A stretch of DNA of 22,077 nt from a virus. Position numbers and translations under genes: made by a program. The notes beneath the pieces are model-generated. The model ran no database searches. It saw only the letters and a list, made by a program, of their open reading frames with translations, and was not told the DNA's origin. Below are positions 1,887 to 21,012 of the stretch, piece after piece. Where the stretch lies: the IMG/VR virus record IMGVR_UViG_3300047557_002807, positions 1 to 22,077 of that record, one strand, 5' to 3'. Numbering within the stretch: position 1 is the first letter of the stretch; each line of letters begins with the position of its first letter.

Positions 1887-4800
1887 TGAGCAAAGATTGT
1901 CGTAAGTTGCTTCCGTATGAGCACGACCTAATTGAGGCTCTTGGCGTAACGAAGGAAGAATACTTTGAATTTTTAGACGTTAGACATGAGTATACAGACA
2001 TCAAGGCTGGCACTGTTTTAGATGCAAGAAATTGGCCAGTTGTCGCCATTGTTCTTACAGTCGTTGGCGTAATATTTCAAGTGGTGGCGGCACTGATTGC
2101 TCCCAAGCCACAGAATCCAGCGATAGCACGAAGTGGTGGAGGAGGAGTTCGTCAGACCAGAGACGACGTATTTGCACCACGAGGCAATTTCAATTCGCTA
2201 CAGCAAGTGGCGGAATACGGCGATATCGTCAATCTTGTTTATACAAATCAAGCTGCTAATCGCAATGGAGGAGTAAGGGTTGCCACTTCTCTTGTCTGGT
2301 CTGCATTGCGCAGTTACGGAAGTAGTCAGTTTATTCAGATGATGGCGATTATTGGTGCTGGAAAAATTGGGCGAATAGATCCAAGGCTTACTGCATTTGG
2401 ACAAACGCCAATGCGTGATTTAATCACTCAAAATTACTGGGTTTATTTCAACGATTACTCAACTGGTTTTCTTAAGAATTCAGACCTACTCCCTGATCCA
2501 TACGGAATTCCTCAGGAGAACGATCCAACTCTCATCGGAAATGGTAACGCCAATCCTTATCAAGTGCCGATTGGCGAGAGAAGTACAGCTCGCAGTCCTG
2601 GCTTTAGCCAATCTTTTTCCTTGTCCGCATCTAAAAGTTTTGGCGTTTATTCGCCTGTCGCCATTAATGTCAATGTAACTCTTAGGAATGAAGATGGCGA
2701 CCCGCAGGCTGTCTTGAATGGGGTTACTGTTAGTATTAACAATAATGCTGGATGGCCTCAAAGACTTGCTTCGATTGGATTAGGTACTATTCTTGTCGTC
2801 AATATTGCAAAGACTTCTTCGTCATCTAACTTAGAAATAGAAGCGTCTGAATATAGGCAGCAAATTGTCAATATCTTTGACAATGCAAGCAGTTTTAAAC
2901 TTGGATCTGCTGTATTTAGCGTGATAGATATTTCTTTTACGGACCTAAGCAGCAATGCCGCGATAATAACTCTTCGATGTGTTGACAGAGGAAATCTTCC
3001 GTCAGTTGATTACAATGACACTTCTGTTGATGATGTAAGTAGTATTACTGCTGCGGGTGAGCTTGCAAAACAAAGTAATCTTACAATAAGAAATTTGCAG
3101 TCCACGATAGATCGAATAGTTTCAGAAGACGAAACAGGCGATACCATTTCTGAGATTCTTACGAAAAATGCAATAGAAAGAATCATTCAGACCTCAAGAC
3201 CTGCTACTAACCAAGAAAAGACTGAATACCTTTGGAACGAATCGCGAAGAAATTTTGGCGCATTAGAAGATTATTTCTGGCAAGGCATGGAGTTGCGCAA
3301 ACGAATTACAGTAAGACAGCAAAGAAGGAGACTTACAACGGAAGAGCGCCAGTTTGTTCGCGCTTATTTAGATGCTCAGGCGGCATTAAGCAATATCTCT
3401 GTCGAAGGACTTGACCTGTTTCGCCTTAAGGCACTTGTTCGAATTGAAAAGGCAAAATATGAAACAATTACACCATGCAATATTGTAGATATTGCCATTA
3501 AATCAAATATTTATAGGCGAATTTCTGGACGACAAGAAACCTATGGAAAAGAGAGGCGCGGTGGATTTCCGTCCTCTGATAATGGATTGAAACTTCGATC
3601 TGCTTTTTTCTTGTTTAAATACAAAAAAGCTTCCGATTCTTCTTATAAATATGCTCCAGGAATTTTTGTTATTCGCAGGGCTTCTGAGCAGGATAATTTT
3701 AATTACCTTCGATTCAATAGCGGATTAACTGGCGAAGATAACGCAACTCATTGGTCATTTGAACTTGAGCCATTACATGACTTTGTTGCAGAGCTAAGGA
3801 AACATCCTGTTTTATCTTCTGCATCTGGCATTAATTATTTTTACATTGAAAATTCTGGGACGCCGGTAAGTCTTGATTTGGCGGGAGACGATGATGCTTC
3901 TTTGATTTTTACTGGAAAGACAGTTATTTCAAAAGACGGCGTTCCTCCATTGTCTTCTGGTCCAGGAAGCGCTAGAGAGTGGGAAGTATTTAGCTTAAAT
4001 GCCGATACTCAGTACCAATTGTCTCTTGATCGTGGGCCAGAAATGCAAATCACGGCGGTCACAGAACAAGTAGTAGTCCCGAATTTTTCAGCATTATTTC
4101 CAGATATTTACAAAGGTATTGCTCTCATTGGTTTAAACATGTATTCAGGCAAGAGTGTTCAAGACTTGCGCTCTTTAAGTGTTTTTGTGCAAAAAGGAAG
4201 ACCAGTTCGCATGCTTAGAACAAGCGGTCAGATTGGCACGTCACGATGGGGCGACGATGATTTTCCTTATTTACCAGGGAGTTCTGTAATTGGCGTCGAT
4301 CAAATGGTGTCCAATACAAGTTATATCATTGAATCACCCGGCGACACTAATTATTACAATTGTGGACTCCCCAGGAACTTACTTCCTCAAATTGGACAAG
4401 ATTTTATTGCGACTGGTCCTGGTTCTGGCACAGGCAGAGTAAGGGCTGCTGGCTATGCAAATACTGCTCCGGATATTTTTGTTGATACTGTCCTTGATCC
4501 GAATGATGGGATTGGCAAGTATGCCAGCATTCATTGCATGAACTTAAAAGAATTAGCTAAGGCAAAAAGATTTTGCGAGAGAAATAGTTTATTTATGGAT
4601 TGCGTTATAGCCGAAGCTCAACCGTGGAGGAGTTTTTGGTCTAGCGTTGGCGGCTTTAGCTTACTGGAATTAGCCCGGATTGGAGGGCAGGACTGCCTTG
4701 TTCCAGCTATTCCATATAATTTCATGACTGGAGAAATTTCGCGAAATATAAAAATTATAGCCCTGTTTAATCAAGGTAATATTTTTGAGGATTCTTATAA

Positions 4801-5542
4801 GGAGGAATTTATTGACTACGGAAGTAATACAGAGGACTTGATTGTTACTTGCATTTACAGAGAATTGGATTCCGATGGTGCCTTTACAAGAAATAGAAGC
4901 GTTGAAGTAAAACGCACTTATGTTAACGAGCAAAAGACTGTTCTTTTGAGTGAGAACGATGCGATTCGCGAAACAATTGATATGTCAGCTTATGTTACCA
5001 ATAGGAGTCAAGCGATTTTAGTTGGCAAAATGTTGTGCCAGTTAAGACATTATGTGCGTCGTGCCATTGAATTCAAAACGTTCCCAACGGACTCTCCGGT
5101 TTTCCCAGGCAGTTTTATTTACGTGGAAACTGGCCATAATGAATGGAACAATATTTTTACTGGAATCGTTCGTTCTAATGGCGTCCTAGATATGCCAATC
5201 AGGGAAACTGGAACATCAGCATTTATTCCAGATGGCGTATACAACGTGCTTACTTATAATCCAAACGATGGAGCGACAAGTACATTGTTCAGGGCTGGTG
5301 TCAATATTGTAGATAATAAGGTTACTGGAAATTCATTGCGTGCTGGTCATCTTTTTGTACTAGGAAAAGAAGTGAGGTCCAAAAGAGTGTTTAGAGTGAC
5401 TGAAGTGGAAATGGATGAAGAAGGAGAAGTGACAATTCGCGGAGTCGAGCATCCATGCGATTCCAATGGTTTATCTTTGGTAACAGAAGGACTCACCAGG
5501 GGATCAACTGGCGTATTTACCATTGATGGTGTCGCTAGTTAG
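1886..5542 (+). CDS. J-like tail tip / host-specificity protein
   Basis: At 1218 aa this is the largest tail-tip gene in the window. Its length and place after the gpK-like gene match lambda gpJ, the central tip protein that closes the tube and contacts the host receptor. Residues 51-72 form a clear hydrophobic helix (VVAIVLTVVGVIFQVV) followed by a Gly-rich hinge (SGGGGVR). This recalls the membrane segment of lambda gpI, so the gene may combine gpI-like and gpJ-like parts; that is inference. Residues 105-180 (QQVAEYGDIVNLVY; IQMMAIIGAGKIG) are the N-terminal region typical of such tip proteins, and the C-terminal third (from about residue 870) has the mixed strand/helix pattern of the tip baseplate core. 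No membrane segment is seen beyond the first. Start ATG overlaps the upstream TGA by one base. Confidence 0.8.
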   Translation: MSKDCRKLLPYEHDLIEALGVTKEEYFEFLDVRHEYTDIKAGTVLDARNWPVVAIVLTVVGVIFQVVAALIAPKPQNPAIARSGGGGVRQTRDDVFAPRGNFNSLQQVAEYGDIVNLVYTNQAANRNGGVRVATSLVWSALRSYGSSQFIQMMAIIGAGKIGRIDPRLTAFGQTPMRDLITQNYWVYFNDYSTGFLKNSDLLPDPYGIPQENDPTLIGNGNANPYQVPIGERSTARSPGFSQSFSLSASKSFGVYSPVAINVNVTLRNEDGDPQAVLNGVTVSINNNAGWPQRLASIGLGTILVVNIAKTSSSSNLEIEASEYRQQIVNIFDNASSFKLGSAVFSVIDISFTDLSSNAAIITLRCVDRGNLPSVDYNDTSVDDVSSITAAGELAKQSNLTIRNLQSTIDRIVSEDETGDTISEILTKNAIERIIQTSRPATNQEKTEYLWNESRRNFGALEDYFWQGMELRKRITVRQQRRRLTTEERQFVRAYLDAQAALSNISVEGLDLFRLKALVRIEKAKYETITPCNIVDIAIKSNIYRRISGRQETYGKERRGGFPSSDNGLKLRSAFFLFKYKKASDSSYKYAPGIFVIRRASEQDNFNYLRFNSGLTGEDNATHWSFELEPLHDFVAELRKHPVLSSASGINYFYIENSGTPVSLDLAGDDDASLIFTGKTVISKDGVPPLSSGPGSAREWEVFSLNADTQYQLSLDRGPEMQITAVTEQVVVPNFSALFPDIYKGIALIGLNMYSGKSVQDLRSLSVFVQKGRPVRMLRTSGQIGTSRWGDDDFPYLPGSSVIGVDQMVSNTSYIIESPGDTNYYNCGLPRNLLPQIGQDFIATGPGSGTGRVRAAGYANTAPDIFVDTVLDPNDGIGKYASIHCMNLKELAKAKRFCERNSLFMDCVIAEAQPWRSFWSSVGGFSLLELARIGGQDCLVPAIPYNFMTGEISRNIKIIALFNQGNIFEDSYKEEFIDYGSNTEDLIVTCIYRELDSDGAFTRNRSVEVKRTYVNEQKTVLLSENDAIRETIDMSAYVTNRSQAILVGKMLCQLRHYVRRAIEFKTFPTDSPVFPGSFIYVETGHNEWNNIFTGIVRSNGVLDMPIRETGTSAFIPDGVYNVLTYNPNDGATSTLFRAGVNIVDNKVTGNSLRAGHLFVLGKEVRSKRVFRVTEVEMDEEGEVTIRGVEHPCDSNGLSLVTEGLTRGSTGVFTIDGVAS

Positions 5543-7316: not shown

Positions 7317-10300
7317 ATGACAATTCGCATTTCCGAACTTGCTGAACTTTCGGTTGATGTTGCTCAGTCTGATGTATTGCCAATTGTAGATATTGGCGCT
7401 CAGGAAACGAAAAAAATTCAAGTTGGAAATCTTCTTCTTTATGGCATCAGCGGTATGCCATCGGGAAGTATTGACCTTTCATTACTTAGTCAAAATTCAA
7501 CTGTAAAGCTGTCATCTACTGCTCTGGCAGTTAACGGTGTAGTCCCTGGCACCTATGGAAATGCTGCGACCGTTCCACAATTCACTGTAAACGACAAAGG
7601 TTTAGTTACGTTTGCTTCTGGTGTTGCAATCACTATTGCAGCTACGAATGTCACAGGACTTGCTCCAGTTGCTACCAGCGGCACTTATGCAAGCCTTAGT
7701 GGGCTGCCGACTCTTGGAACCATCGCATCACAAGATGCTAGTAGCGTCAGCATTAGTGGCGGAACCATTAGCGAAGTTTCTTTAACTACTGGTTCTGCAG
7801 TTATTAGTGGTGGAACAATTGTCAATATCACTGATCTCACAGTTGCCGATGGTGGTACTGGTGCATCAAACGCCGCTGATGCGCGTACAAATCTTGGTCT
7901 AATCATTGGTTCTGATGTTCAAGGTTATAGCCCTATTCTTTCTGGCGTTACACAGCAATTTACTGCAGCAGACCAGATTGTTTATTCGACTGCCTCTGGA
8001 GCTTTAGCGTCTACAACTTTAAGCTCTTTTGGTCGTTCCGTTATTTCTGGAGCAAGTGCCGATGCTGTCCGCACTACCATTGGCCTTGGGACGCTTGCCA
8101 CTCAAAACGCAACAAGTGTTGCCATTAGCGGAGGAACAGTTAGTGGTGTTTCACTTTTTACAGGTAATGCAGTTATTAGTGGCGGTTCCATTGTTGGCAT
8201 TTCTGACTTAGCTATTGCTGATGGTGGCACTGGCGCATCTACTGCAGCAGCAGCACGTACAAATCTAGGCTTGGATATTGGAAATGATATTCAAGCATTC
8301 AATTCAAATCTGCAGCAAATTAGCTCTTTATATTCTGGTCCAGATGAAATCGTTTATGCTTCTGCTTCTGGCGTCATTGAGACCACTGTTCTTTCTTCCA
8401 TTGGTCGTGCAATAATCAGCGGTCAAACTGCTGATGAGGTTAAAAGTATTCTTGGCATTGGCAATATTGCATCTCAGTCTGATGGATCTGTCACTATCTC
8501 TGGAGGTGTAATTTCCAATGTTACGCTTTCCACCTCAAACGCTACTATTACTGGTGGTAATATTAGTGGCATTTCTGATTTAGCAATTGCTGATGGTGGT
8601 ACTGGTGCATCTACAGCAGCCGATGCACGTACTAACTTAGGAGTTGCTATTGGTAGCAACGTTCAAGCGTATAGCCCCATTCTTTCAGGAGTTACGCAGC
8701 AATTTACTGCTGCAAATCAAACCATTTATTCCACTGCATCTGGAGTTCTTGCATCTACTGCATTAAGCGAATTTGGTCGCTCTGTAATTTCTGGAGGAAC
8801 TGCTGCAACTGTCCGAACAACGCTTGGCCTTGGATCCATTGCCACACAAGATGCCAATAGTGTCGCTATCTCTGGTGGCACGATTAGTGGTGTCAATATT
8901 ACGGCAACAAATCCGACAATTAGCGGCGGTACAATTGTCGCAATTACTGATCTAGCAATTGCAGATGGCGGCACTGGTGCCTCTACTGCTTCTGGCGCAA
9001 GAGCTAATCTTGGCCTTGCTATTAATAGTGATATTCAAGGCTATAGTCCTTTGCTGGCTAATATTGCTCAGCAGTTTACAAATGCAGATGAAATTATCTA
9101 TTCAACTGCCTCTGGCATAGTTGCATCTACTCCAATTAGTGCTGTTGGTCGTTCTATTATCAGCGGCTCTACTGAGGGAGATGCAAGAAATTCTCTTGGA
9201 CTGGGAACGCTTTCTGTTCAAAACGCTGGCTCTGTTTCAATCTCTGGTGGAACAATTACGGGTATTAGCGATTTAGCAATTGCGGATGGAGGTACTGGTG
9301 CTTCCAATGCTGCTGATGCCAGAGCCAATCTAGGACTTGCCATTGGCACCAATGTTCAAGCTTATTCTGCTGGGCTTTCATCCATCGGAGCCTTATCTCC
9401 TGCGTCTGGTTCAGTTATTTATTCGCAAGGAAATAATACATATACGGCAAAAACTGTAACGCCTTATATGTTGGATATGCTTGCAAGCGGAGATGCCGCT
9501 GCTAGCACGAGAACGTACCTTGGTCTTGGTTCTTTAGCAACAAAAGATACCATTGGCAATAGTGATATTCCAGAGGCGACAATTAGTGGCGCTATCCTTG
9601 CTAGCGGCACTTTAACAAGCCGCGAAATCGGGGCAAACGCAATTTATACTGCATCTATCCAAGATGCAAGTGTCACCACTGCAAAAATTGTCAATAGTGG
9701 TGTTACGGCTATTAAGCTTGCTGATAATTCTTCCTCCATTGTTGCCATTGGCGCTCCACTTGCTAATGGCACTTTTATTGGTCAGCGCTACTTTGACACC
9801 GCCACTTCCTATAGCTATGTATGGGATGGAATTGAATGGGAACGAGAAGCAGGTATTACAAATATTACGTTTACTGATAGCACTCCTTTAGGCTTTTCCG
9901 TTGGATATGCCGATAGATTTTCTGCTCAAATTACGACAACTTTAGAAAACCAGTCGGCCAATACGTTTTTTGCTGGTCCTTCGTCGGGAGTTGCTACAAC
10001 TCCTGCGTTTAGAACTCTCACTTCCTCTGATCTTCCCATTGCAACTACTTCTACGCTTGGCGTAGTTACCCCAGGGGCTGGTCTTGCGGTAACTGCTGGT
10101 GGCACTTTAAATCACTCAAATACTGTTGCTGCTGGTAGCTACATTGGAGCATTTACCATTGACAGTCAAGGTCATATTACTTCTGCTGCAACTGAATTAA
10201 CTGAAGAGGAAATTCCTGGTTTAGATGCAAGTAAAATTATCACCGGCCAGTTCTCTGGGGAATTTCTTGCTCCAAATAGCGTTACGGCTTCGCAGCTTGC

Positions 10301-10943
10301 TGATTATGGCATTGCGCAAGTTAGCGAAACTGCTCCCGTTCCAGAGTTTGCTGGTCAATGGTGGGTGAATCCTAATGATCGCTCGGCATATATCTGGGTT
10401 GGTGAAGTCACCCCGCTGGTTCAAGGATATTGGCTTAATCTTGGCTATGGATCTCCCACGCAAATTAACTTGCGTTTTGGTGGCACATATAACGCTTCTG
10501 GAAATGTCGTTGAAAGTATCAACAGCTATGGCATTGAAGCCGGCCTAAGCATTGGCCAAGGTCTTGCTGCTCCGAATAGCAGCAATAATGGTGTATACCT
10601 AATTGTTACTACCAGCGGTGTTGGAGTTAGTCCTGCTCCTGGTGAAGCGCTTGCAGTTGGAAACTGGGTTCTTTCTCAAGGAAATGGTGCAACTTGGACA
10701 AAAGTTAATCTTAGTAGTGCTGTTGCTGGCATTGGCGATCAAGATGTGCTTGTCGATGGCGGTGCATTATCTCCTGTCGCGTCTGGGGTGGCCAGCCAAG
10801 AAGACTTAAATGAAATTCTATGGGGACGGACTCAAATTGCCACCACGATTAGCCGTGGTATCGTCCAGGCATCTTCCGAGGTGCTTGTTAATGGAACTAC
10901 TGGCACCATGACAATTGGTGTAATTGATGATGGCACTTATTAA
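7317..10943 (+). CDS. Long repetitive tail fibre protein
   Basis: A 1208-aa Ser/Thr/Gly/Ala-rich protein with no signal peptide. The N-terminus (ISELAELSVDVAQSDVLPIVD...KKIQVGNLL) resembles the virion-attachment segment of many phage fibres. Residues ~177-750 consist of repeats of about 124 aa, each opening with ADGGTGAS[TN]AA[DA]AR[TA]NLG, a motif common in phage tail fibres. Later segments include DLPIATTSTLGVVTPGAG, an AGSYIGAFTIDSQGHIT motif and a FAGQWWVNPNDRSAYIW motif, also typical of fibre shafts. The protein very likely forms a trimeric shaft with a receptor-binding end. A good Shine-Dalgarno (aggaga) lies in the end of the upstream gene. Repeat homogeneity suggests recent expansion or gene conversion. 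Confidence 0.82.
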   Translation: MTIRISELAELSVDVAQSDVLPIVDIGAQETKKIQVGNLLLYGISGMPSGSIDLSLLSQNSTVKLSSTALAVNGVVPGTYGNAATVPQFTVNDKGLVTFASGVAITIAATNVTGLAPVATSGTYASLSGLPTLGTIASQDASSVSISGGTISEVSLTTGSAVISGGTIVNITDLTVADGGTGASNAADARTNLGLIIGSDVQGYSPILSGVTQQFTAADQIVYSTASGALASTTLSSFGRSVISGASADAVRTTIGLGTLATQNATSVAISGGTVSGVSLFTGNAVISGGSIVGISDLAIADGGTGASTAAAARTNLGLDIGNDIQAFNSNLQQISSLYSGPDEIVYASASGVIETTVLSSIGRAIISGQTADEVKSILGIGNIASQSDGSVTISGGVISNVTLSTSNATITGGNISGISDLAIADGGTGASTAADARTNLGVAIGSNVQAYSPILSGVTQQFTAANQTIYSTASGVLASTALSEFGRSVISGGTAATVRTTLGLGSIATQDANSVAISGGTISGVNITATNPTISGGTIVAITDLAIADGGTGASTASGARANLGLAINSDIQGYSPLLANIAQQFTNADEIIYSTASGIVASTPISAVGRSIISGSTEGDARNSLGLGTLSVQNAGSVSISGGTITGISDLAIADGGTGASNAADARANLGLAIGTNVQAYSAGLSSIGALSPASGSVIYSQGNNTYTAKTVTPYMLDMLASGDAAASTRTYLGLGSLATKDTIGNSDIPEATISGAILASGTLTSREIGANAIYTASIQDASVTTAKIVNSGVTAIKLADNSSSIVAIGAPLANGTFIGQRYFDTATSYSYVWDGIEWEREAGITNITFTDSTPLGFSVGYADRFSAQITTTLENQSANTFFAGPSSGVATTPAFRTLTSSDLPIATTSTLGVVTPGAGLAVTAGGTLNHSNTVAAGSYIGAFTIDSQGHITSAATELTEEEIPGLDASKIITGQFSGEFLAPNSVTASQLADYGIAQVSETAPVPEFAGQWWVNPNDRSAYIWVGEVTPLVQGYWLNLGYGSPTQINLRFGGTYNASGNVVESINSYGIEAGLSIGQGLAAPNSSNNGVYLIVTTSGVGVSPAPGEALAVGNWVLSQGNGATWTKVNLSSAVAGIGDQDVLVDGGALSPVASGVASQEDLNEILWGRTQIATTISRGIVQASSEVLVNGTTGTMTIGVIDDGTY
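7848..9560 (+). repeat. Tandem 372-bp coding repeats in the long fibre
   Basis: The GAT codon of the ADGGTGAS motif falls at 7848, 8220, 8592, 8964 and 9285. The first three intervals are each exactly 372 bp (124 codons). The fourth is 321 bp because a 17-residue segment equivalent to VNITATNPTISGGTIVA is absent. The fifth unit decays after about 60 residues. Half a unit (SVSISGGTISEVSL... to NITDLTV) precedes the first motif. Confidence 0.9.
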
Positions 10944-11212: not shown

Positions 11213-13522
11213 ATGTCAACTTTACGCCACATTCGTTCGTCAACTGCAGATAAGCGTCCGGCTGCCTCTGGACTTGCTGATGGACAAATTGCAATTAATA
11301 CAGCATCGGGCACTCCTGGCATTTATATCAGAGACAACGCAAGTGGCATTGTAAAAATTGGCCCTGCGCACGTTGGTACTACTGCTCCCAATGCGTCTCC
11401 TGCTGGTAGCACTGGAAATTCACGGGGTGAATTTTGGGTGGATGAGGCCACGACAACTCCCGGCCTTAAATATTTCAATGGGTCTGCATTTTTTAATCTC
11501 ACTCCATCGGGAACTACTACTACAGTTGGATTGGTAGAGCTTGCAACTCCAGCAGAAACACAAGCTGGCACTGATGGTACTCGCGCTGTAACGCCATCTG
11601 GCTTGCAAAGCAAAATCAGTGATAGTGTTAGCACTAGTAGTTCTACTACTATTGCATCGGCTACTGCGGTTAAAACTGCTTATGACTTAGCAGCCTCTGC
11701 TATTTCTAGTGCTGGCGGAACTATTAATGGCCAGCTTTTAATTGGACCAAGTGGAAGTCTAGTTTTTGAAGGAAGCACTGATGATAGCTTTGAGACTACC
11801 ATTGCGGTAACAAATCCAACTGTTGCTGATCGCACCATTACATTTCCAGATATTACAGGAACCGTTGTAACCACTGGAGATAGTGGCAGTGTCACTTCAG
11901 CAATGATTGCCAATGGCACTATTGTCGATGAAGATATTAGTGCTAGTGCTGCAATTGCAGATACTAAGCTTGCTACGATTAGCACAGCAGGAAAAGTAAG
12001 CAATAGCGCAACAACTGCTACCAGTTCGAATACCATCAATGCAATTGTTGCCCGTGATAGCAGCGGTAATTTTTCTGCTGGTACTATTAGTGCAGCTTTA
12101 ACTGGTAATGCTTCTACGGCTACTGCCTTATCAAGCTCGCGAACATTTGCTCTTACTGGCAACGTAACTGGAAGTGTCAGTTCTGACTTAACAACTGGAG
12201 CATCCATTTCCACGACCATTGCTTCTGGCGTGGTAACGAGTGCCATGATTGCCGATGGCACTATTGTCGATGGTGATATTAGCGCTAGTGCTGGAATTGT
12301 CGATACAAAGCTTGCAACTATTAGCACGGCTGGCAAAGTTAGCAATAGTGCTACTACTGCAGCAAGTGCAAATACTGCTAATGCAATTGTCGCTCGTGAT
12401 GCGAGTGGTGATTTTTCCGCTGGCACAATTACTGCGGCTCTTTCTGGCAATTCGTCTACGGCCACTGCATTATCCAGTTCGCGGACGTTCGCTCTTACTG
12501 GCAACGTAACTGGAAGTGTTAGCTCTGATTTGACGAGTGGAGCTTCAATCTCCACGACCATCGCTTCTGGCGTTGTGACTAGCGCCATGATCGCTGACGG
12601 AACCATTGTTGATGGCGACATCAGCGCTAGCGCCGCAATTTCTGACAGTAAGCTTGCGACAATTTCCAGCGCAGACAAAGTAAGCCTGTCTGCTTTAAAT
12701 ATTGATGGGGCGACTGATATTGGTGCGGCACTGGCAGATGTTGACCTATTTATTGTCGATGATGGAGCAGTCGGTACAAATCGAAAAGCCGAAGCATCTC
12801 GTATTCCCACTTATGTTTTTAGCAAAGTAAGTGGAGATATTACTATTAGTGCTTCTGGCATTTCTTCTATTGGTGCTGGTGTCATTGTCGATTCAGAAAT
12901 TAGCGCAAATGCCGAAATTGCCGTAAGTAAGCTTGCTAATGGTACTGCACGACAACTTCTTCAAACTGACTCCACTGGTTCCGGTGTTGAATGGACTAGT
13001 AACGTCGATATTCCTGGCACCTTAGATGTCACTTCCACGGCAACATTTGATGGAGCCGTGAATATTGCTGGTGCGGTCACTATTAATGATGCCGGTGCTG
13101 ATATTGACGTGAGGATGGAAGGTGACACCAATACTCACCTTTTCTTCCTCGATGCAAGCACTGATCGCATTGGGTTTAATCAATCTGCTCCAGCCACTAA
13201 GATTGACATCAATGGCAATTATGGCCAAAACATTGTTGCAGTTGCTGCTTTAGATATTGATTGTAGTGCTGGAAATTATTTCACAAAAACGATAAATGGA
13301 AATAGCACATTTACTGTCAGTAATGTACCAGCAAGCCGTGCTTATAGCTTCACTCTTGAACTTACGCACACCAGTGGTACTGTCACATGGTTTAGTGGAG
13401 TTGAGTGGCCAGGAGGAACAGCTCCAGTTTTAACGACTGGCAAAACGCATCTTTTTGTATTTGTCACTGATGATGGTGGCACTCGCTGGCGTGGCGTTTC
13501 TGCTATAAACTACACGAACTGA
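11213..13522 (+). CDS. Tail fibre / virion structural protein with 114-aa repeats
   Basis: A 769-aa protein. The N-terminus (RHIRSSTADKRPAASGLADGQIAIN, then GIYIRDNASGIVKIGP) is the virion-attachment start common in cyanophage structural proteins. Residues ~80-165 hold a GEFWVDEATTTPGLKYFNGS segment and a VGLVELATPAETQAGTD segment, a fibre motif also seen in other phages. Residues ~227-490 are 114-aa repeats (TIVDGDISASA; NAIVARDASG; ALTGNVTGSVSSDL). The last ~70 residues (SFTLELTHTSGTVTWFSGV...FVTDDGGTRWRG) form a compact C-terminal domain I have seen at the ends of cyanophage fibres. A clear ribosome site (ggagg) lies 8 bases before ATG. Role: probably host attachment. Confidence 0.78.
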   Translation: MSTLRHIRSSTADKRPAASGLADGQIAINTASGTPGIYIRDNASGIVKIGPAHVGTTAPNASPAGSTGNSRGEFWVDEATTTPGLKYFNGSAFFNLTPSGTTTTVGLVELATPAETQAGTDGTRAVTPSGLQSKISDSVSTSSSTTIASATAVKTAYDLAASAISSAGGTINGQLLIGPSGSLVFEGSTDDSFETTIAVTNPTVADRTITFPDITGTVVTTGDSGSVTSAMIANGTIVDEDISASAAIADTKLATISTAGKVSNSATTATSSNTINAIVARDSSGNFSAGTISAALTGNASTATALSSSRTFALTGNVTGSVSSDLTTGASISTTIASGVVTSAMIADGTIVDGDISASAGIVDTKLATISTAGKVSNSATTAASANTANAIVARDASGDFSAGTITAALSGNSSTATALSSSRTFALTGNVTGSVSSDLTSGASISTTIASGVVTSAMIADGTIVDGDISASAAISDSKLATISSADKVSLSALNIDGATDIGAALADVDLFIVDDGAVGTNRKAEASRIPTYVFSKVSGDITISASGISSIGAGVIVDSEISANAEIAVSKLANGTARQLLQTDSTGSGVEWTSNVDIPGTLDVTSTATFDGAVNIAGAVTINDAGADIDVRMEGDTNTHLFFLDASTDRIGFNQSAPATKIDINGNYGQNIVAVAALDIDCSAGNYFTKTINGNSTFTVSNVPASRAYSFTLELTHTSGTVTWFSGVEWPGGTAPVLTTGKTHLFVFVTDDGGTRWRGVSAINYTN
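11891..12684 (+). repeat. Tandem 342-bp coding repeats
   Basis: Copies begin at 11891, 12233 and 12575, each at the codon for Val in VTSAMIA[ND]GTIVD. The spacing is exactly 342 bp (114 codons) both times. The third copy is complete only to the KLATIS[TS]A[GD]KVS segment and then stops. The second half of a unit contains NAIVARD[AS]SG[ND]FSAGTI and ALTGNVTGSVSSDL. Confidence 0.9.
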
Positions 13523-13532
13523 GGATAAAATA

Positions 13533-15206
13533 ATGGATCCTATTTCACGCCAACTTTTTATTGGAGCAAGTGCCGGTGCTTCAGACCCGATGATTTTAGT
13601 TTTCAATACAAATCTCGGGACTACCACTGTGACGCTCCCAATGGTAGGAGCACATACTATTACTGTTAACTGGGGAGATGGCCTTTCTGATAGTTATAGC
13701 AGTACCGTGAGTGCCAACAGGACACATACTTATGCAGCAAATGGCACTTATACAGTGCAAATCTATGGCACGGCTTTTGGATTTGGTGGAACTACTTCCA
13801 GGCCACAGCTTACAAAGTGTTTGTCGTTTGGTGCTCTTGGATTGCAAAGTCTTTCCAACGGATTTAGAGCTTGCGCAAATCTTAATGAGGTGCCATCGTC
13901 TCTGCCATCTACTGTTACAAATTTGTCAGGATGCTTTCAAAGCGCAACTTCTTTTAATTTTGATATTAGTGGCTGGAACGTTGCAAATGTAACAAATATG
14001 TCCAGCATGTTTCTAAGCGCTACCGCCTTTAACCAAAATATTGGAAGTTGGAACGTTGCGAATGTAACGAGCATGTCGTCAATGTTTGAAAGCGCCACCG
14101 CCTTTAATCAAAACATTGGAAGCTGGAACGTTGCGAATGTAACGAGCATGACGTCAATGTTTCGAAGTGCTAGCGCTTTTAACCAAAACATTGGAAGTTG
14201 GAACGTCGCAAAAGTAGGAAATATGGAAAACATGTTTCGATCAGCCACCGCCTTTAATCAAAATATTGGAAGCTGGAATGTTGCGAATGTACTGACCATG
14301 GCGGCAATGTTTCAAAGCGCTAGCGCTTTTAATCAAAACATTGGAAGTTGGAACGTTATAAAGGTAACAAATATGGCGAGCATGTTCAATGCGGCTGCCG
14401 CCTTTAACCAAAGCATTGGAAGCTGGAATGTTTCAAACGTAGACAACATGTTCGCTATGTTTCAAAATGCCACTGTTTTTAATCAAAACCTTTCTAATTG
14501 GTGTGTTGGCTGGATTACAGCAGAGCCAGGCAGCTTTTCTTCGGGAAGCGCCTTAACTGCTGGCAACAAACCAGTATGGGGAACATGTCCTGGATTTGTA
14601 GCGAATGGTTCCATTTCTTTTATAGGTGCAGCAGAAGGAACCGATACGGTAACTCCTCCAGCGCATCAATCAGGAGATACGTTAATTGCAATTGTTGTAA
14701 ATGAAGGAGGAACTAGCGGTGGCCAGACGGGCGGATGGACTTACGGTGGACTGCGATTTTTTAGCAACTTTACAAGCATGATGGAAATTTATTACAAAAA
14801 TGCAGTATCGAGTGGAGAAACAATAGGAACATTTATAAGCGCCGATAGGGTGGCGGTTCTTGTTTATAGAGGAGTAGAAACGTCTGGATGGTCCATTAGT
14901 TCTCCTCATACGAGCAATTCAGCAACAGGTAGTGGAGTGTCTGTAACATATCAAAGTAATAATTTTTGGCCGAATTTATCTTGGAAAGCGCCAATACTGG
15001 CTCATGAATCAACAGATCAAACGGTAAGCGTTGTGCCATCTGGTATTACATCGCGAAGTAATACAAACACGACACTTCGCTTGTTTGCTGGCGATACCAA
15101 TGCAAGTACAAGCGGATATGCTGGACAGACGATTACCGTAAGCGGAACTTCTGCAGGATGGGCAACAGTTACAATGACATTACGCAATAAACTTATTCCC
15201 GCTTAA
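13533..15206 (+). CDS. Fibre/adhesin with PKD-like domain and BspA-type (DUF285) leucine-rich-like repeats
   Basis: A 557-aa protein, probably a receptor-binding fibre or tip adhesin. Residues ~20-85 look like a PKD-type beta domain (VNWGDG...HTYAANGTYTVQIYG), which often precedes DUF285 repeats in bacterial surface proteins. Residues 147-321 are seven uninterrupted 25-residue repeats of the type SWNVANVT[NS]M[SA][SA]MF..A[TS]AFNQNIG, the BspA/DUF285 solenoid; a degenerate eighth follows (NWCVGWIT). Residues ~355-557 are a separate beta-rich C-terminal domain (SGDTLIAIVVN...GWTYGG...GWATVTMTLRN) like those ending other phage tail proteins. No signal peptide is seen, which fits a virion protein rather than a secreted one. 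A ribosome site (gagga) overlaps the upstream stop. DUF285 repeats are best known from bacterial surface adhesins, so acquisition by transfer is possible. Confidence 0.75.
   Translation: MDPISRQLFIGASAGASDPMILVFNTNLGTTTVTLPMVGAHTITVNWGDGLSDSYSSTVSANRTHTYAANGTYTVQIYGTAFGFGGTTSRPQLTKCLSFGALGLQSLSNGFRACANLNEVPSSLPSTVTNLSGCFQSATSFNFDISGWNVANVTNMSSMFLSATAFNQNIGSWNVANVTSMSSMFESATAFNQNIGSWNVANVTSMTSMFRSASAFNQNIGSWNVAKVGNMENMFRSATAFNQNIGSWNVANVLTMAAMFQSASAFNQNIGSWNVIKVTNMASMFNAAAAFNQSIGSWNVSNVDNMFAMFQNATVFNQNLSNWCVGWITAEPGSFSSGSALTAGNKPVWGTCPGFVANGSISFIGAAEGTDTVTPPAHQSGDTLIAIVVNEGGTSGGQTGGWTYGGLRFFSNFTSMMEIYYKNAVSSGETIGTFISADRVAVLVYRGVETSGWSISSPHTSNSATGSGVSVTYQSNNFWPNLSWKAPILAHESTDQTVSVVPSGITSRSNTNTTLRLFAGDTNASTSGYAGQTITVSGTSAGWATVTMTLRNKLIPA
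13971..14495 (+). repeat. Seven 75-bp tandem repeats with a 150-bp higher-order pattern
   Basis: Units start at 13971, 14046, 14121, 14196, 14271, 14346 and 14421, all exactly 75 bp. From the second unit on, the first codon alternates agt/agc, and in units 2-5 the codons for the ATAF/ASAF segment alternate between accgcctttaa and agcgcttttaa. This synonymous alternation indicates that two-unit (150-bp) blocks were copied. Confidence 0.9.
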
Positions 15207-15223: not shown

Positions 15224-15667
15224 ATGGCTTACGCACGAATTCAAAACGGAACAGTTGCTGAATATCCTTTGTCTGTATTTGACATTCAAAAAAAATTTCC
15301 AAATACTAGTTTCACTTCCCCATTTGTACCCCCAAGTGGATATGTTGACGTAGTTGATTTGCAGCAGCCTCAAGCTAGCTTTGGGCAAAAAGCAATCGAA
15401 AAGCTTCCTTCGTTTATTAATGGTCAATGGCGCCAGCAATGGCAACTTGTTGTTCTTAGCGAAGAAGAATCAAGGGCCGCGCTTTTTGCAAAAAGCACCG
15501 AGATTAGGAATGAAAGGAATAAGCGACTGTTGGAGTCGGATTGGACGCAGCTTCCTGACACTCCAGTAGATGCAGAACCATGGAAAATTTATCGACAGCA
15601 ACTGCGAGATATCACTAATGCTGGTGGATTTCCGTTTTCCGTGCAATGGCCAGTTCCTCCCGCGTAA
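15224..15667 (+). CDS. Tail assembly chaperone-like protein (Phage_tail_APC type)
   Basis: A 147-aa protein. Residues 1-60 are a short N-terminal module (MAYARIQNGTVAEYP...DVVDLQQPQ), and residues ~85-146 carry RNERNKRLLESDWTQLPDTP, WKIYRQQLRDIT and GGFPFSVQWPVPP. That C-terminal pattern is characteristic of phage tail-fibre-associated assembly proteins of the Phage_tail_APC kind, which usually follow fibre genes and are thought to help fold or attach them. It directly follows the BspA-type fibre here, which supports a role with that fibre. No Shine-Dalgarno is visible before ATG (cattttctttttgcc), so translation may depend on readthrough coupling or another signal. Confidence 0.75.
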   Translation: MAYARIQNGTVAEYPLSVFDIQKKFPNTSFTSPFVPPSGYVDVVDLQQPQASFGQKAIEKLPSFINGQWRQQWQLVVLSEEESRAALFAKSTEIRNERNKRLLESDWTQLPDTPVDAEPWKIYRQQLRDITNAGGFPFSVQWPVPPA

Positions 15668-15704
15668 AACGTTGCTACGATTAGCTTGTCATGAATCTTG
15701 ATCA

Positions 15705-15842
15705 ATGGCAGTCAAAAGCAAAATTGGCGCATCCAGCAGCAAGCGTATTGTCATTAGCAAACCCAAGCGCACTCGCCAAGGCGACGGCAAGCACAGCAAG
15801 CCCAGCCATGGCAGGAAGCTCTCAAGGGGCCAAGGCGGTTAA
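15705..15842 (+). CDS. Small very basic protein (45 aa)
   Basis: A 45-aa protein with about 14 Lys/Arg and almost no acidic residues, reading MAVKSKIGASSSKRIVISKP, then KRTRQGDGKHSKP, then HGRKLSRGQGG. Short basic proteins with this layout (SK...KPKRTR.G.GKH.KP..G.K..RGQG) occur in many cyanophages next to virion genes, as I recall; their role is unknown, and nucleic-acid binding is a reasonable guess from charge. An overlapping frame (ATG at 15691 to TGA at 15846, 51 aa, Ala/Ser-rich) also exists but has no recognisable pattern. There is no clear Shine-Dalgarno. A strong terminator follows 16 bases after the stop. Confidence 0.72.
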   Translation: MAVKSKIGASSSKRIVISKPKRTRQGDGKHSKPSHGRKLSRGQGG

Positions 15843-15858
15843 TTGACAGGTGCCATGC

Positions 15859-16147: not shown

Positions 16148-17380
16148 GTGGGACAAGTTGTACGTGGTGGCGAGCAGTTTGAAACTCACATTGAGGCTGA
16201 TCATCGCGGACAGCTTGTCCAGAAAGGGCCAGATAGTGGACTTGTTGATGCATTTGGACGCCAACGTTTTAGTCAGCCATTTACTCTTTTTGATTCGATG
16301 CTGCGCTACACGAAGCGCACGGATCAATGGAATGAACTAACCGTTGGTAGTGGCACTACAAATTATTTAATCAATGAAAGTTCTTTAGAGCTGAAAACGA
16401 CCACAGCTTCTGGAGATACTGCTCTTCGGCGCTCTCGCAGACATTTTCCTTATCAGCCCGGTAAGAGCCTGTTTGTTTTAGCAAGTTTTGTTGGAAGCCC
16501 ATTGCAAAGTGGCTTGATTCAAGAAGTGGGATATTTTGATGATGATAATGGCATTATGCTTCGCGCTAGTGGTACAACTCTGCAATTTGTCATTCGTAGT
16601 TCTGCCACTGGTTCCCCAGTCGAAAGAACGGTAAGTCAAAACGAATGGAACATTGATACTTTTTCAGGCTTTGATTTTTCTAAGGCCAATATTTTTGTCA
16701 CCGATTTTGAATGGCTTGGCGTTGGAAGAGTGCGTTGTGGTTTTGTTGTTGATGGCGAAATCCGCTATTGCCATGAATTTAATCACGCCAATGTTATTAA
16801 TTCTGTCTATATGACCTCGGCTATTTTGCCGTTGTCCTATCGCATTCATAATTCTTCCTCCATTGCTTCTCCCGCAACATTTAGACAAGTGTGTGCAAGT
16901 GTGATGAGCGAGGGAGGTTATCAGCCCACTGGACCGATTTATACTGCTGGTCGAGGAGCCGCCAATTTTACTTCTGTCACATCAGAAACACTTGTAGCCG
17001 CTATTCGCATGGCAAGTGGTCGCACTGATAATGTGATTATTCCAGCTCAAATTGATGCAAGCATTGGCGGCAATCCAGCATCTAATACGGTGGCGCAATG
17101 GCGCCTTCGCTTGAATCCAACAGTCAGTGGCGTTTGGCAGCCTGCTGCTAATGGACGTGGAAATGTAGAAGTGATGAGTAGTGGCACGTTTAGTGGTGGC
17201 ACTGCGATTGGAGGGGGTCTTGTCGCATCTAGAAGCGCTATTGAGTTTGACCCCGAAAGCGGCCTAGGTCTCGCCTTGGGACAGGACATCAATGGAGCAA
17301 GTGATATTCTTATTTTGACTCTTGAATGCAGTGGTGCAGAAAACGCTACTGGCTTGATTGGCTGGAGGGAAGTGGTGTAA
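16148..17380 (+). CDS. Cyanophage-type virion structural protein (410 aa)
   Basis: The GTG start at 16148 is supported by a good ribosome site (taggaag) 6 bases upstream. Residues 28-58 (DSGLVDAFGRQRFSQPFTLF then DSMLRY), 98-105 (HFPYQPGK), 121-132 (GLIQEVGYFDDD), the NIFVTDFEWLGVGRVRCGF segment and the VCASVMSEGGY segment are signature stretches of a virion protein family I know from marine cyanophages, where it is usually annotated only as a structural protein. It is beta-rich, without signal peptide or membrane helix, and may be a fibre, collar or whisker component. It lies at the end of the fibre block. The specific role is unknown. Confidence 0.78.
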   Translation: MGQVVRGGEQFETHIEADHRGQLVQKGPDSGLVDAFGRQRFSQPFTLFDSMLRYTKRTDQWNELTVGSGTTNYLINESSLELKTTTASGDTALRRSRRHFPYQPGKSLFVLASFVGSPLQSGLIQEVGYFDDDNGIMLRASGTTLQFVIRSSATGSPVERTVSQNEWNIDTFSGFDFSKANIFVTDFEWLGVGRVRCGFVVDGEIRYCHEFNHANVINSVYMTSAILPLSYRIHNSSSIASPATFRQVCASVMSEGGYQPTGPIYTAGRGAANFTSVTSETLVAAIRMASGRTDNVIIPAQIDASIGGNPASNTVAQWRLRLNPTVSGVWQPAANGRGNVEVMSSGTFSGGTAIGGGLVASRSAIEFDPESGLGLALGQDINGASDILILTLECSGAENATGLIGWREVV

Positions 17381-18037: not shown

Positions 18038-18423
18038 TCAAGGCGATAAGTGATGCGCATTTCGCCTCCTAATGCTTTCACTTCTTCTGAGGCATTTGGC
18101 GCTGCTTCTCTGATGATCATCACGCTTGGCACTGGCGCATCTGGCATGGGCGTCACCTTGGCATCAGGGTAAAGCTCCTGAGCCTTCGCTGCAAGCGCTT
18201 CTGAGCGGGCCTGTCTTTCCTCTCTATTCCATTGCTCCACTAGCCCCTTCGCCTGCTCGTCAACCGCCTGAAGCGTTGTCTCAGTTTTCCATTCCACCCA
18301 TGGCTCCTTGCAATAAGCAAGAAGCATTTTTAACCATGGAGAAAACCGTAAGCGAGGAAAACGCTCAATTAAGCGAATTGCCACTTCGTAGCAAAAAGCA
18401 AAAAAGAGCGTTTCGTTTTTCAT
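18034..18423 (-). CDS. Unknown protein of the lysis cassette (129 aa)
   Basis: A 129-aa protein encoded directly after the YkuD-type enzyme, with start and stop overlapping as ATGA. The N-terminus (ETLFFAFCYEVAIRLIE) is hydrophobic but interrupted by charges, so it is more likely an amphipathic helix than a true membrane span. Residues ~55-85 form a charged helix (LVEQWNREERQARSEALAAK), and the C-terminal part is Pro-rich (MPDAPVPSVMIIREAAPN). No known lysis or enzyme motif is recognised. Location suggests a role in lysis or an enzyme partner, but that is inference. Confidence 0.55.
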   Translation of the reverse strand: MKNETLFFAFCYEVAIRLIERFPRLRFSPWLKMLLAYCKEPWVEWKTETTLQAVDEQAKGLVEQWNREERQARSEALAAKAQELYPDAKVTPMPDAPVPSVMIIREAAPNASEEVKALGGEMRITYRLE

Positions 18424-18932
18424 CCTTCTTGGAAGACACTTACAAAAACAGTGCCAGCGCGAGTGAGTGGCAGGATCCTGTCACGCAGATCAATGTTGTA
18501 ACAGCGCACACAGCCATGGGTTGGAAATAATTGCTGACTTGGCACCCAGGCACCAGGCCATCCGCATGCACTTCCTCCTCCATGGATCATGATTCCTGCG
18601 CGACCGTGTTTGATTTCTTGGCGCTCTAGCTCAACTAAGTCGAAGCTATACCAGCCAAAAGCCATTAAGGTGCGATCGTATGCAGGTCGATTGCCTACAC
18701 GCTCGTAATCACGATAAATGGTGCCAATTTTGTAGAGACCAGGAGGCGTGTCTGAATTTGGGATTTTGTATTCAGAATCACCGTACTGGCCGCGAGCTAA
18801 ACAGGAGATTTCCCAAAGCAACTCCCCTTCAAAACTGAAGGCTTTCATCGTCTCCGAGATGTCGTTAACGATTAAATGAGAGTCACCTTGCTTGAAGCCA
18901 AAATCTTGCGGGCGCTTAGACGGTCCGATCAT
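18420..18932 (-). CDS. YkuD-fold L,D-transpeptidase-like enzyme, candidate endolysin
   Basis: A 170-aa protein with the YkuD (L,D-transpeptidase) signature. Residues 113-120 read GIMIHGGG with His117, and residues 138-146 read THGCVRCYN, matching the [ST]HGC[VI]R.xN box whose Cys (Cys141) is the nucleophile. The N-terminal half (SHLIVNDISETMKAFSFEGE) fits the strand region that opens such domains. No signal peptide is present, so export would need the nearby holin-like protein. YkuD enzymes attack the third residue of peptidoglycan stem peptides, so here it could act as a carboxypeptidase or endopeptidase. It stands where an endolysin gene is expected, between holin-like and unknown genes. 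No lysozyme or amidase gene is seen in the window. Confidence 0.78.
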   Translation of the reverse strand: MIGPSKRPQDFGFKQGDSHLIVNDISETMKAFSFEGELLWEISCLARGQYGDSEYKIPNSDTPPGLYKIGTIYRDYERVGNRPAYDRTLMAFGWYSFDLVELERQEIKHGRAGIMIHGGGSACGWPGAWVPSQQLFPTHGCVRCYNIDLRDRILPLTRAGTVFVSVFQEG

Positions 18933-19332: not shown

Positions 19333-19425
19333 TTCTTTAAAAACTGTTTACTTTTTATTTTCTAATTCTAATTGGAGCGTTTTCTCCTCCATTGTTTCCT
19401 ATGCTTAAGAAAACACAATAAGTTT

Positions 19426-19914
19426 ATGGGCGGGAGAAATGGGCCTGACGATCTTCTCCATTCTCTTCTTGAGCTTCGTCCTTCTGAAGCAAAACGCCGA
19501 TTCCGAAAATCTATCTTTGAAGACTATCCCCTGCGTGGTCCGCTCGGACAGCCAGCATGCGCATATTGTGGCAAATGGCACGAGAAGCTAACGCTTGATC
19601 ACTTAGTGCCCAAAAGCAAAGGCGGTCCGCACTATGCAAAATGGAACTTAGTGCCTGCATGTCGAGAACACAATGGAGCGAAGGGAGACCTGCCAGTATT
19701 TGAGTTCTGGCGTCCCCTAGATTGCTGGACTCCTCATCGCGAAGAGCTTCTTCTTTCATGGGTGCATTCTCATAGCTTTGTGAGTGCACATACGGACATT
19801 GCCGACTGGGAACAATGGATCGAGAGCCTGCAGCGAGTGGTGCCTATTCACGAAAGACATAAAGAAAAGGCGCCCATTTGGGCGCCTTCGTTGCAATTAA
19901 GACTGGCTAGTTAG
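19426..19914 (+). CDS. HNH endonuclease
   Basis: Start at ATG 19426 gives 162 aa ([20 protein letters not shown]); an in-frame TTG at 19372 would add 18 residues. Residues 45-83 are an HNH domain: [20 protein letters not shown] with a CxxC pair, the Asp-His of the first strand, then [12 protein letters not shown] with Asn74, a second Cys-x-x-His pair and Asn83. This is a metal-binding, DNA-cutting fold. It is the only + gene between two leftward blocks, the typical position of a mobile free-standing endonuclease or moron. C-terminal helices ([20 protein letters not shown]) belong to a family I associate with cyanophages. Its last ~17 codons contain a hairpin terminator. No Shine-Dalgarno is clear. 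Confidence 0.75.
19861..19888 (-). terminator. Intrinsic terminator for the leftward thyX-DUF3310 operon
   Basis: A perfect 9-bp stem (aaggcgccc at 19867-19875 with gggcgcctt at 19880-19888) with a 4-base loop. On the minus strand it is followed by a T-rich run (ttttcttta), as required for termination of leftward transcription. On the + strand no T-run follows. It lies inside the 3' end of the HNH coding region, 19 bases beyond the DUF3310 stop. Confidence 0.8.
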
Positions 19915-20299
19915 CTGGCGGAAACATGGGCTCTGATGGGCCTTGCCTTACGGAAGGTAATGGACAGAAACCATCAGGACAGCCACTTGCCATGTAGTCA
20001 TCGGGGTCGTGGCTTACTTCTTCATCAAAGAAGGTTTTGATCACTTCCTTGCTTTGCTCTTGAATGCGCTGTGCAGTGGATTCTTCTTGCTCAACAATGG
20101 CGATAAGGCGATCAAGATACCAACGACATTTCTTAAGTGATTCACTGCCGCCTTTTGCTTCATACCGCCATAAATACTTCTGGCAATTGCCTTTTAGGAA
20201 ACCCTTGAAGGCAACAGCATTCATCGAGGCTTCAATAGCCTCAATGCATTCAATGGCGCCAGAAGCGTAATGCTCTGGAGAATTCACAGGATCGTGCAT
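19907..20299 (-). CDS. DUF3310 protein, possible nucleotide kinase (T7 gp1.7-like domain)
   Basis: A 130-aa protein. Residues 4-68 match DUF3310: [20 protein letters not shown], then [20 protein letters not shown], then [11 protein letters not shown]. This domain occurs in T7 gp1.7, described as a nucleotide kinase acting on dTMP and dGMP; extending that activity to this protein is inference. The C-terminal tail ([12 protein letters not shown]) carries a Cys pair. It follows thyX with a 2-bp gap, so the pair could make dTMP and then dTDP. Its stop overlaps the end of the HNH gene by 8 bases, and a terminator follows. Upstream ribosome site is weak. Confidence 0.75.
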
Positions 20300-20301
20300 G
20301 A

Positions 20302-21012
20302 TCAGAACTGGTAATCGTTGTTTTCAAAAGCAGCAAACGCTTCAGGAGCTACAGGCATGCCAAGCTCCATCAATGCGCGAGCATAAGCTGCGATTTCGCC
20401 TTGAGCATCCTTGCCAATGCGAAGTGAAATGAAATGGAACAATGCTTGTAAGCTACACGTCCAACAGAAGCTCGTATAAAGGCAGCCAGGAAGCACGCCG
20501 CGAGCCTGTTCCTTGCTGATGCCTGCCATCACCATGGTCTCGTAAGCCTGCTTTGCCACTTGGATGGCCTCTGCGTAGGAGTGGAGGGCAATGGCCGCTT
20601 CACGGGCCGCTACAGGACCGTCTGAAGCTTGCTTGTTATTGCTGCTCTGCTTTAGGAATTCCATGGGCACATAAAACTCTGCATCTTCTGCTGAGCAATA
20701 ACGGAAGCTTTTTTCATTCCAGCCAAGTTGATCATCAACATAAGTGGAGGCAACAGTGTGCTTCCACCATTGACGAGCAATGAACAAAGGACACTTCACA
20801 AACCACTTAAATACCACGCCCCTGAAAGGAGAAGTGTGATGGTGTTTTGCGAGATAGTTCAAAAGCTTTGTATCGCGCTCGGAAAATTCTTCTGAACGAT
20901 TGTCAAAGCTTTGGCGAGCATCATTCACCACGGAGAGACTGTTCCCCATGGAATCAATGAGCATTACGATGCTCTTGCCATCACCGAGAGGATCAATGGA
21001 GGGGAAAATCAT
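20302..21012 (-). CDS. thyX: Flavin-dependent thymidylate synthase ThyX
   Basis: A 236-aa protein that lines up by eye over most of its length with Thermotoga maritima ThyX as I remember it: MGNSLSVVNDARQSF, LAKHHHTSPFRGVVF, FVKCPLFIARQWWKH, AEFYVPMEFL, and QARGVLPGCLYTSFCWTCSL. The enzyme methylates dUMP to dTMP using FAD and folate. The signature RHR...NE.S.RY box is altered: residues 84-86 are Lys-His-Thr, eight residues are inserted after VAS (around YVDDQLGW), and then NEKSFRY (Ser102, Arg104) is kept. The downstream ...LR....AQ.EI box is present, with Asp in place of a His I recall in T. maritima. Start ATG overlaps the upstream stop (ATGA); DUF3310 follows. It likely supplies dTMP during phage replication. 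Confidence 0.9.
   Translation of the reverse strand: MIFPSIDPLGDGKSIVMLIDSMGNSLSVVNDARQSFDNRSEEFSERDTKLLNYLAKHHHTSPFRGVVFKWFVKCPLFIARQWWKHTVASTYVDDQLGWNEKSFRYCSAEDAEFYVPMEFLKQSSNNKQASDGPVAAREAAIALHSYAEAIQVAKQAYETMVMAGISKEQARGVLPGCLYTSFCWTCSLQALFHFISLRIGKDAQGEIAAYARALMELGMPVAPEAFAAFENNDYQF

What the first reader, a model, noticed from the sequence alone, without database searches (positions are those of the whole stretch)
13533..15206. Phage fibre built from a PKD-like domain plus BspA/DUF285 repeats
DUF285 repeats are best known from surface adhesins of bacteria and some protists. Here seven perfect-length units lie between a PKD-like domain and a fibre-type C-terminal domain, directly before a tail assembly chaperone-like gene. 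This looks like a bacterial adhesin module captured as a receptor-binding fibre.
Basis: partly seen in the sequence, partly recalled or inferred. Interest (0 to 1): 0.62.

Follow-up and report, generated by a model that had tools for sequence, protein, structure and literature searches.

The report
Swappable leucine-rich tip for phage tail
This gene very probably encodes the exchangeable, host-gripping end piece of a phage tail fibre, built around seven copies of a leucine-rich-type repeat best known from bacterial surface proteins, and relatives show that it belongs to a standing phage family and was not freshly borrowed from a bacterium.

Summary
ORF 13533-15206 (557 aa) has a short N-terminal tag, a PKD-like domain, seven exact 25-residue DUF285/PARCEL units (residues 141-315), a cysteine-bearing cap and an all-beta C-terminal domain. 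A tail-assembly-chaperone gene follows 17 bp later.

The fibre reading is supported, though not proved. Nine viral loci, this one included, share tag-PKD-DUF285-same C-terminal domain, and all nine are followed by such a chaperone gene; 1 of 68 other viral DUF285 loci is. Related phages carry in the same slot proteins with the same 14-residue tag but different bodies (beta-propeller, DUF7483, small unknown). These sit behind fibre genes with a shared C-terminal domain. A close relative resembles the window only from 36 bp past the chaperone, so whole fibre modules are swapped.

'Captured bacterial adhesin' is only partly right. Bacterial proteins also pair PKD with DUF285, and the exchanges are old and repeated, but this protein's closest full-architecture kin are phage proteins. 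The predicted fold is an LRR-type solenoid.

DUF285 in phages is already annotated (119 GenBank phage records). The three-gene exchangeable-tip cassette was not described in any paper I found. I rate it a new variant of a known kind.

The parts
13533..15206 (+). tip/fibre protein, 557 aa: tag + PKD-like + 7 DUF285 units + cap + beta C-terminal domain
13533..13592 (+). N-terminal tag, residues 1-20 (MDPISRQLFIGASAGASDPM), proposed docking peptide
   Evidence: profile of first 14 residues trained on ten slot proteins of other contigs ranks this start first of 255 in the window, 18.3 against 1.4
13590..13826 (+). PKD-like domain, about residues 20-98
   Evidence: PKD_4 at 36-77, sub-threshold; pLDDT above 90; homologous part in nine-member alignment
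13827..13952 (+). N-cap of the repeat array, residues 99-140
13953..14477 (+). seven 25-residue DUF285/PARCEL (LRR-type) units, residues 141-315
14478..14591 (+). degenerate eighth unit and C-cap with WCVG...WGTCP, residues 316-353; two cysteines invariant in nine relatives
14592..15203 (+). phage-type C-terminal beta domain, residues 354-557
15224..15667 (+). tail fibre assembly chaperone (Phage_tail_APC / Tfa type), 147 aa
11213..13522 (+). preceding fibre/minor tail protein, 769 aa; C-terminal domain (residues 641-769, nt 13133-13519) shared by the genes in front of this slot in other phages, proposed docking partner
7317..10943 (+). further tail fibre protein, 1208 aa, of the same module
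15706..15706 (.). left edge of DNA similarity to close relative L168; likely border of the exchangeable fibre module

Best explanation
The protein is an exchangeable receptor-binding tip (or short fibre) of the phage tail. The short N-terminal tag docks it, most likely onto the conserved C-terminal domain of the fibre made by the preceding gene. The PKD-like domain caps and spaces an LRR-type solenoid of seven DUF285 units, whose variable surface contacts a glycan or protein on the host. The C-terminal beta domain and the neighbouring chaperone serve folding and assembly. Phages change specificity by replacing the tip body between tag and chaperone, or the whole fibre module. Shown here: architecture, family, linkage, swapping. 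Inferred: presence in the virion, docking partner, ligand, role in adsorption.
For: The tail-gene neighbourhood includes a tape-measure end, tail tip, fibres and a chaperone. Nine of nine members with the full architecture precede a chaperone gene, against 1 of 68 other viral DUF285 loci. The shared tag carries different bodies: SBBP beta-propeller in L098 and L247, DUF7483 in L104, unknown ~190 aa in L094. Preceding genes end in the same domain in those loci and, more weakly, in the DUF285 family members. L168 is 84-92% identical to the window only from 15706 rightwards. The C-terminal domain occurs in phage structural proteins and in none of 80 bacterial DUF285 loci. Residues 17-353 align to LRR ectodomains at Z 14-16. 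DUF285 genes directly follow fibre genes in uvMED AP013547 and lie in a collar/baseplate module in ACG-2014f. A fibre-chaperone pair has been solved in myocyanophage Pam3, with N-terminal docking of the fibre (PMC9608196).
Against: There is no virion proteomics or binding data. The tag is modelled at low confidence (pLDDT about 40) and docking was not modelled. The chaperone may serve the preceding fibre instead: its close relatives stand beside tips that lack this C-terminal domain. Not every phage DUF285 gene lies among tail genes (Campylobacter phage CPt10; Butyrivibrio virus Arian). The C-terminal domain has no solved relative (best Z 4.8).
Confidence: 0.72

Rival explanations
1. A separate short side fibre, trimerised by its C-terminal domain with help of the chaperone and attached to baseplate or tail tip, not a tip on the preceding fibre.
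For: Pam3 gp24 is a small trimeric fibre with N-terminal docking to the baseplate and a neighbouring chaperone. The C-terminal domain is a well-modelled beta domain that also stands alone in a Rhizobium phage minor tail protein.
Against: Conservation of the preceding gene's C-terminal domain wherever the slot is filled points to that fibre as partner. LRR-type solenoids usually act as monomers (general knowledge).
Confidence: 0.35
2. A recent capture of a bacterial surface adhesin by this phage.
For: DUF285 and PKD-DUF285 proteins are abundant in Bacteroidota and others. The repeat arrays of some bacteria are as similar as viral ones (best segment 62-63% against 59-60%).
Against: Eight further phage loci share the whole architecture, including a C-terminal domain not seen in 80 bacterial DUF285 loci. 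In the tree of the non-repeat part the nearest rows are all phage.
Confidence: 0.08
3. An accessory adhesin of the virion that binds environmental or mucus-like glycans and keeps the phage near hosts, and is not the determinant of host recognition.
For: Phage adhesins with Ig-like domains can bind non-host surfaces (PMC13370021, abstract seen). DUF285 proteins are packaged in virions of the alga virus AaV (PMC7507832).
Against: Position in the fibre slot before a fibre chaperone, and swapping with other bodies, fit host-range selection better.
Confidence: 0.15
4. A non-virion protein, for example exposed on the infected cell, that only lies in the late tail operon.
For: Several phage DUF285 genes are annotated as surface proteins or lipoproteins and some lie away from tail genes.
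Against: The start shows no obvious signal peptide or lipobox by eye; tag shared with other slot proteins; chaperone linkage; phage structural C-terminal domain.
Confidence: 0.07

Closest known systems
DUF285 / PARCEL / 'BspA-family 26-residue repeat' surface proteins (Pfam PF03382, TIGR02167; PMC2996958)
   Same: 25-residue tandem units, variable copy number, exposed-surface role assumed; PKD-like domain before the array also in bacteria
   Different: Here joined to a phage C-terminal domain and a short tag, inside a tail-fibre cassette with a chaperone
Phage-encoded DUF285 proteins (PHROG 17273, 3649, 35701, 22899; ACG-2014f, jumbo phages, uvMED AP013547)
   Same: Same repeat family in phages, sometimes next to tail-fibre or baseplate genes
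   Different: Most lack this C-terminal domain and the chaperone neighbour; function not studied in any paper found here
Pam3 gp24 tail fibre and gp25 chaperone (PMC9608196, PDB 7YPX)
   Same: Fibre gene followed by a Tfa-type chaperone gene; N-terminal docking, distal host-recognition part
   Different: [quoted passage not shown] no sequence match between the window's chaperone and a Pam3 chain in the PDB search
Tip adhesin gp38 on gp37 of T2/S16-type phages (general knowledge)
   Same: Separate exchangeable protein that caps a fibre and sets host range
   Different: gp38 binds through glycine-rich loops; homology was not tested here; order and chaperone differ

Membership tests
DUF285 / PARCEL repeat proteins | Score above the curated cut-off of PF03382 and TIGR02167 | tested here: met
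   418.5 bits against 25; 83.6 against 30
DUF285 / PARCEL repeat proteins | Tandem 25-residue period | tested here: met
   Seven exact units; lag-25 identity 0.73
DUF285 / PARCEL repeat proteins | Cell-surface location in a bacterium | not testable with these tools
   Phage contig; location needs experiment
PKD domain | Pfam PKD family score above cut-off | tested here: not met
   PKD_4 20.9 bits against 27; hence 'PKD-like'. Foldseek lists a PKD domain (4xed, prob 0.44) only weakly
LRR-type solenoid | Curved repeat solenoid fold | tested here: met
   On a predicted model only: Z 14-16 over residues about 17-353
Tail fibre / receptor-binding protein | Gene in the tail-fibre module next to a fibre-assembly chaperone | tested here: met
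Tail fibre / receptor-binding protein | N-terminus shared with, and body exchanged among, proteins in the same slot | tested here: met
Tail fibre / receptor-binding protein | Present in the virion and needed for adsorption | not testable with these tools
   No cultured phage or proteome at hand
Tfa/APC chaperone (15224-15667) | PF16778 match above cut-off | tested here: met
   70.7 bits against 26.6

The most novel reading that the evidence does not exclude
These phages use an LRR-type solenoid as a tunable binder at the fibre tip and diversify it by gaining, losing and homogenising 25-residue units (about 5 to 13 units by motif count in nine relatives; units 2, 3 and 5 here 84-88% identical in DNA), much as lamprey variable lymphocyte receptors do with their LRR modules.
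Probability: 0.25. Interest if true: 0.68.

Novelty: new variant of a known kind. Interest (0 to 1): 0.47.

Why it matters
It gives an experimentally open role to a widespread 'domain of unknown function'. DUF285 arrays, known from Mycoplasma, Bacteroidota, protists and algal viruses, are in one phage family placed as the swappable end of a tail fibre, with a defined docking tag and chaperone. That makes the binding function of DUF285 directly testable, and offers a natural tag-body-chaperone scheme for studying how phages change the surface they recognise.

Tried and rejected
Solved relatives by sequence: none useful for the protein, the C-terminal domain or the family profile. The C-terminal fold search gave only weak matches, best Z 4.8 with a Tuc2009 baseplate tripod protein. 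Phylogeny of the repeats themselves was not used because units are saturated and homogenise; the PKD-plus-cap part was used instead, but with few columns, 51 of 94 open forks and no bootstrap. DNA search of phage genomes found nothing near, so no named phage or host can be given. The hand-made tag pattern was drawn up after seeing the sequences and is replaced by the trained profile. Upstream neighbours of viral DUF285 genes match many tail-fibre families but each in few members, so I do not claim that all phage DUF285 proteins are fibres.

Full report
WHAT IS THERE. The window is a 22,077-base fragment of a tailed-phage genome from IMG/VR. On the + strand lie the end of a tape-measure-like protein, minor tail proteins, a 1218-aa tail-tip-like protein (1886-5542), two proteins with major-tail-protein matches, a 1208-aa fibre (7317-10943), a 769-aa fibre/minor tail protein (11213-13522), the protein in question (13533-15206), a tail fibre assembly chaperone (15224-15667) and a virion structural protein (16148-17380). 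The last has homologues mostly in Synechococcus phages, and the tail-tip-like protein hits only Microcystis phage Mic1, so a cyanobacterial host is likely but not shown.

OBSERVATION. The 557-aa protein matches DUF285 at E 1.9e-127, and a PKD model below its cut-off. Seven exact 25-residue units occupy residues 141-315, with a degenerate eighth; the NCBI model for this repeat is PARCEL TIGR02167. Self-identity at lag 25 is 0.73 against a shuffled maximum of 0.19. Units are 63-88% identical in DNA among the seven; units 2, 3 and 5 are the closest (84-88%, third positions 76-88%), which suggests duplication or gene conversion within the array.

THE FAMILY. A profile of the C-terminal domain (residues 354-557) found, in viral contigs, eight further distinct loci with the complete order tag, PKD-like, DUF285 array, same C-terminal domain: L266, L259, L408, L409, L410, L412 (near-identical copies L413, L414), L416, L421 (alignment). 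Array size varies from about 5 to 13 units by a simple motif count, and a WCVG...WGTCP cap with two invariant cysteines closes every array. All nine loci, the window included, have a chaperone-type gene next: eight by profile, and L410 by reading the start of the gene before the contig ends. Of 68 other viral DUF285 loci with enough downstream DNA, one has such a gene near (Fisher p 6e-11; my chaperone profile comes from three sequences and may miss divergent ones). None of 80 bacterial DUF285 loci carries the C-terminal domain. Outside this family the domain occurs in other phage structural proteins, such as a 214-aa 'minor tail protein' of Rhizobium phage RHph_Y38.

THE SLOT. Contigs related through the chaperone, the preceding fibre gene or the structural protein keep the order fibre, X, chaperone, but X differs. 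It is a beta-propeller (SBBP) protein in L098 and L247, a DUF7483 protein in L104, proteins of similar length and beginning in L231 and L242, and ~190-aa proteins of unknown kind in L094, L113 and L226. Their first 14 residues follow one pattern (MDPxSRxLLxGAxG). A position profile trained on ten of them, without the window, gives the start at 13533 a score of 18.3, first of 255 possible starts in the window, the next being 1.4; in 31,581 starts of other loci only 15 score as high, and the listed ones are the training proteins or copies of them. The gene in front ends in a domain homologous to residues 641-769 of the 769-aa protein in nearly all of these loci, and also in L412, L416 and L421; in L409, L259, L408, L410 and L266 the match is weak (E 1e-7 to 0.004 in a small search). 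The simplest reading is a three-gene cassette: a fibre with a docking end, an exchangeable tip with a short N-terminal plug, and a chaperone. Many of these loci were fetched by similarity to the window's fibre or chaperone, so their co-occurrence is partly by selection; those found through the C-terminal domain (L412, L416, L421) are independent of that.

MODULE EXCHANGE. Contig L168, whose structural protein is 97% identical, aligns with the window at 84-92% DNA identity from position 15706 to the right end apart from short gaps, and not at all to the left of it; 15706 is 36 bp beyond the chaperone stop, and several more distant contigs also begin to align at 15705-15706. L168 has other genes there, among them one with tail-fibre matches. 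So the fibre module up to that point is exchanged as a unit.

STRUCTURE. AlphaFold2 on the nine-member alignment models the PKD-like domain and cap with confidence above 90, the array at 62-92 and the C-terminal domain poorly. Residues about 17-353 align to LRR ectodomains at Z 14-16 with rmsd mostly 3.5-4.7 A (repeats inflate Z, and Foldseek alone had no significant PDB match). In the viral library the best matches are phage and giant-virus BspA/DUF285 proteins. The C-terminal domain alone, with 20 homologues, folds confidently as an all-beta domain (pLDDT 83.5, pTM 0.84) without a clear solved relative.

ORIGIN. DUF285 arrays are plentiful in bacteria, mostly Bacteroidota in this sample, and in phages, and the PKD-like domain precedes the array in many of both. 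A tree of the PKD-plus-cap part (97 rows, 135 columns, weakly resolved) places the window with L412, L409, L408, L410 and L266 (support 80) and needs 11 changes between viral and cellular labels, against 32 in shuffles, at least 3 of them forced by well-supported branches. So exchange between phages and cells happened several times but is old with respect to this protein; the direction is not resolved.

HOW IT PROBABLY WORKS. Tip protein on, or short fibre beside, the preceding fibre; the tag docks, the solenoid binds the host, the beta domain and the chaperone assist assembly. The nearest solved example of a fibre-chaperone pair is Pam3 gp24-gp25, where the fibre's N-terminal helical domain docks to the baseplate and the chaperone drives trimerisation (PMC9608196). 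DUF285 proteins are known inside virions of the algal virus AaV (PMC7507832), which shows that the repeat can be a virion component. Virion presence, ligand and docking partner are inference here.

NOVELTY. DUF285 in phages is already annotated in 119 phage records and in one jumbo-phage paper (PMC7765460). I found no paper describing DUF285 as an exchangeable fibre tip with its own docking tag and chaperone, but most subscription journals are outside the library. Verdict: a new variant of a known kind, of moderate interest.

Noticed in passing
window 11903-12640 (+), inside the 769-aa fibre gene: Tandem 342-bp repeat, 2.2 copies, 80% match, coding for ...AMIADGTIVDGDI... units; the fibre itself varies by repeat number.
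   Followed up: no
window 18420-18932 (-): YkuD L,D-transpeptidase-like domain (Pfam E 6e-6, above its cut-off) in a phage gene: possible cell-wall enzyme.
   Followed up: no
window 19372-21012: HNH endonuclease (+), DUF3310 / nucleotide-kinase-like protein (-) and ThyX thymidylate synthase (-): a nucleotide-metabolism block that is collinear in many of the related contigs.
   Followed up: partly
window 15692-15846: Short ORF (MNLDQWQSK...) at the junction where similarity to relatives begins; may mark the recombination border of the fibre module.
   Followed up: partly
L002 5926-7659: 577-aa DUF285 protein with PKD-like start in an unrelated phage contig beside terminase and portal genes, without the C-terminal domain or a chaperone.
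   Followed up: partly
L381, L371, L389: DUF285 proteins on contigs labelled as Lokiarchaeota/Helarchaeota; two of them (L381, L371) fall inside a viral part of the tree: integrated viruses, exchange or mis-binned contigs.
   Followed up: no
L432 2858-6642 (Synechococcus phage ACG-2014f): DUF285 gene behind three tail-collar genes and in front of glycosyltransferase and nucleotide-sugar epimerase genes.
   Followed up: no
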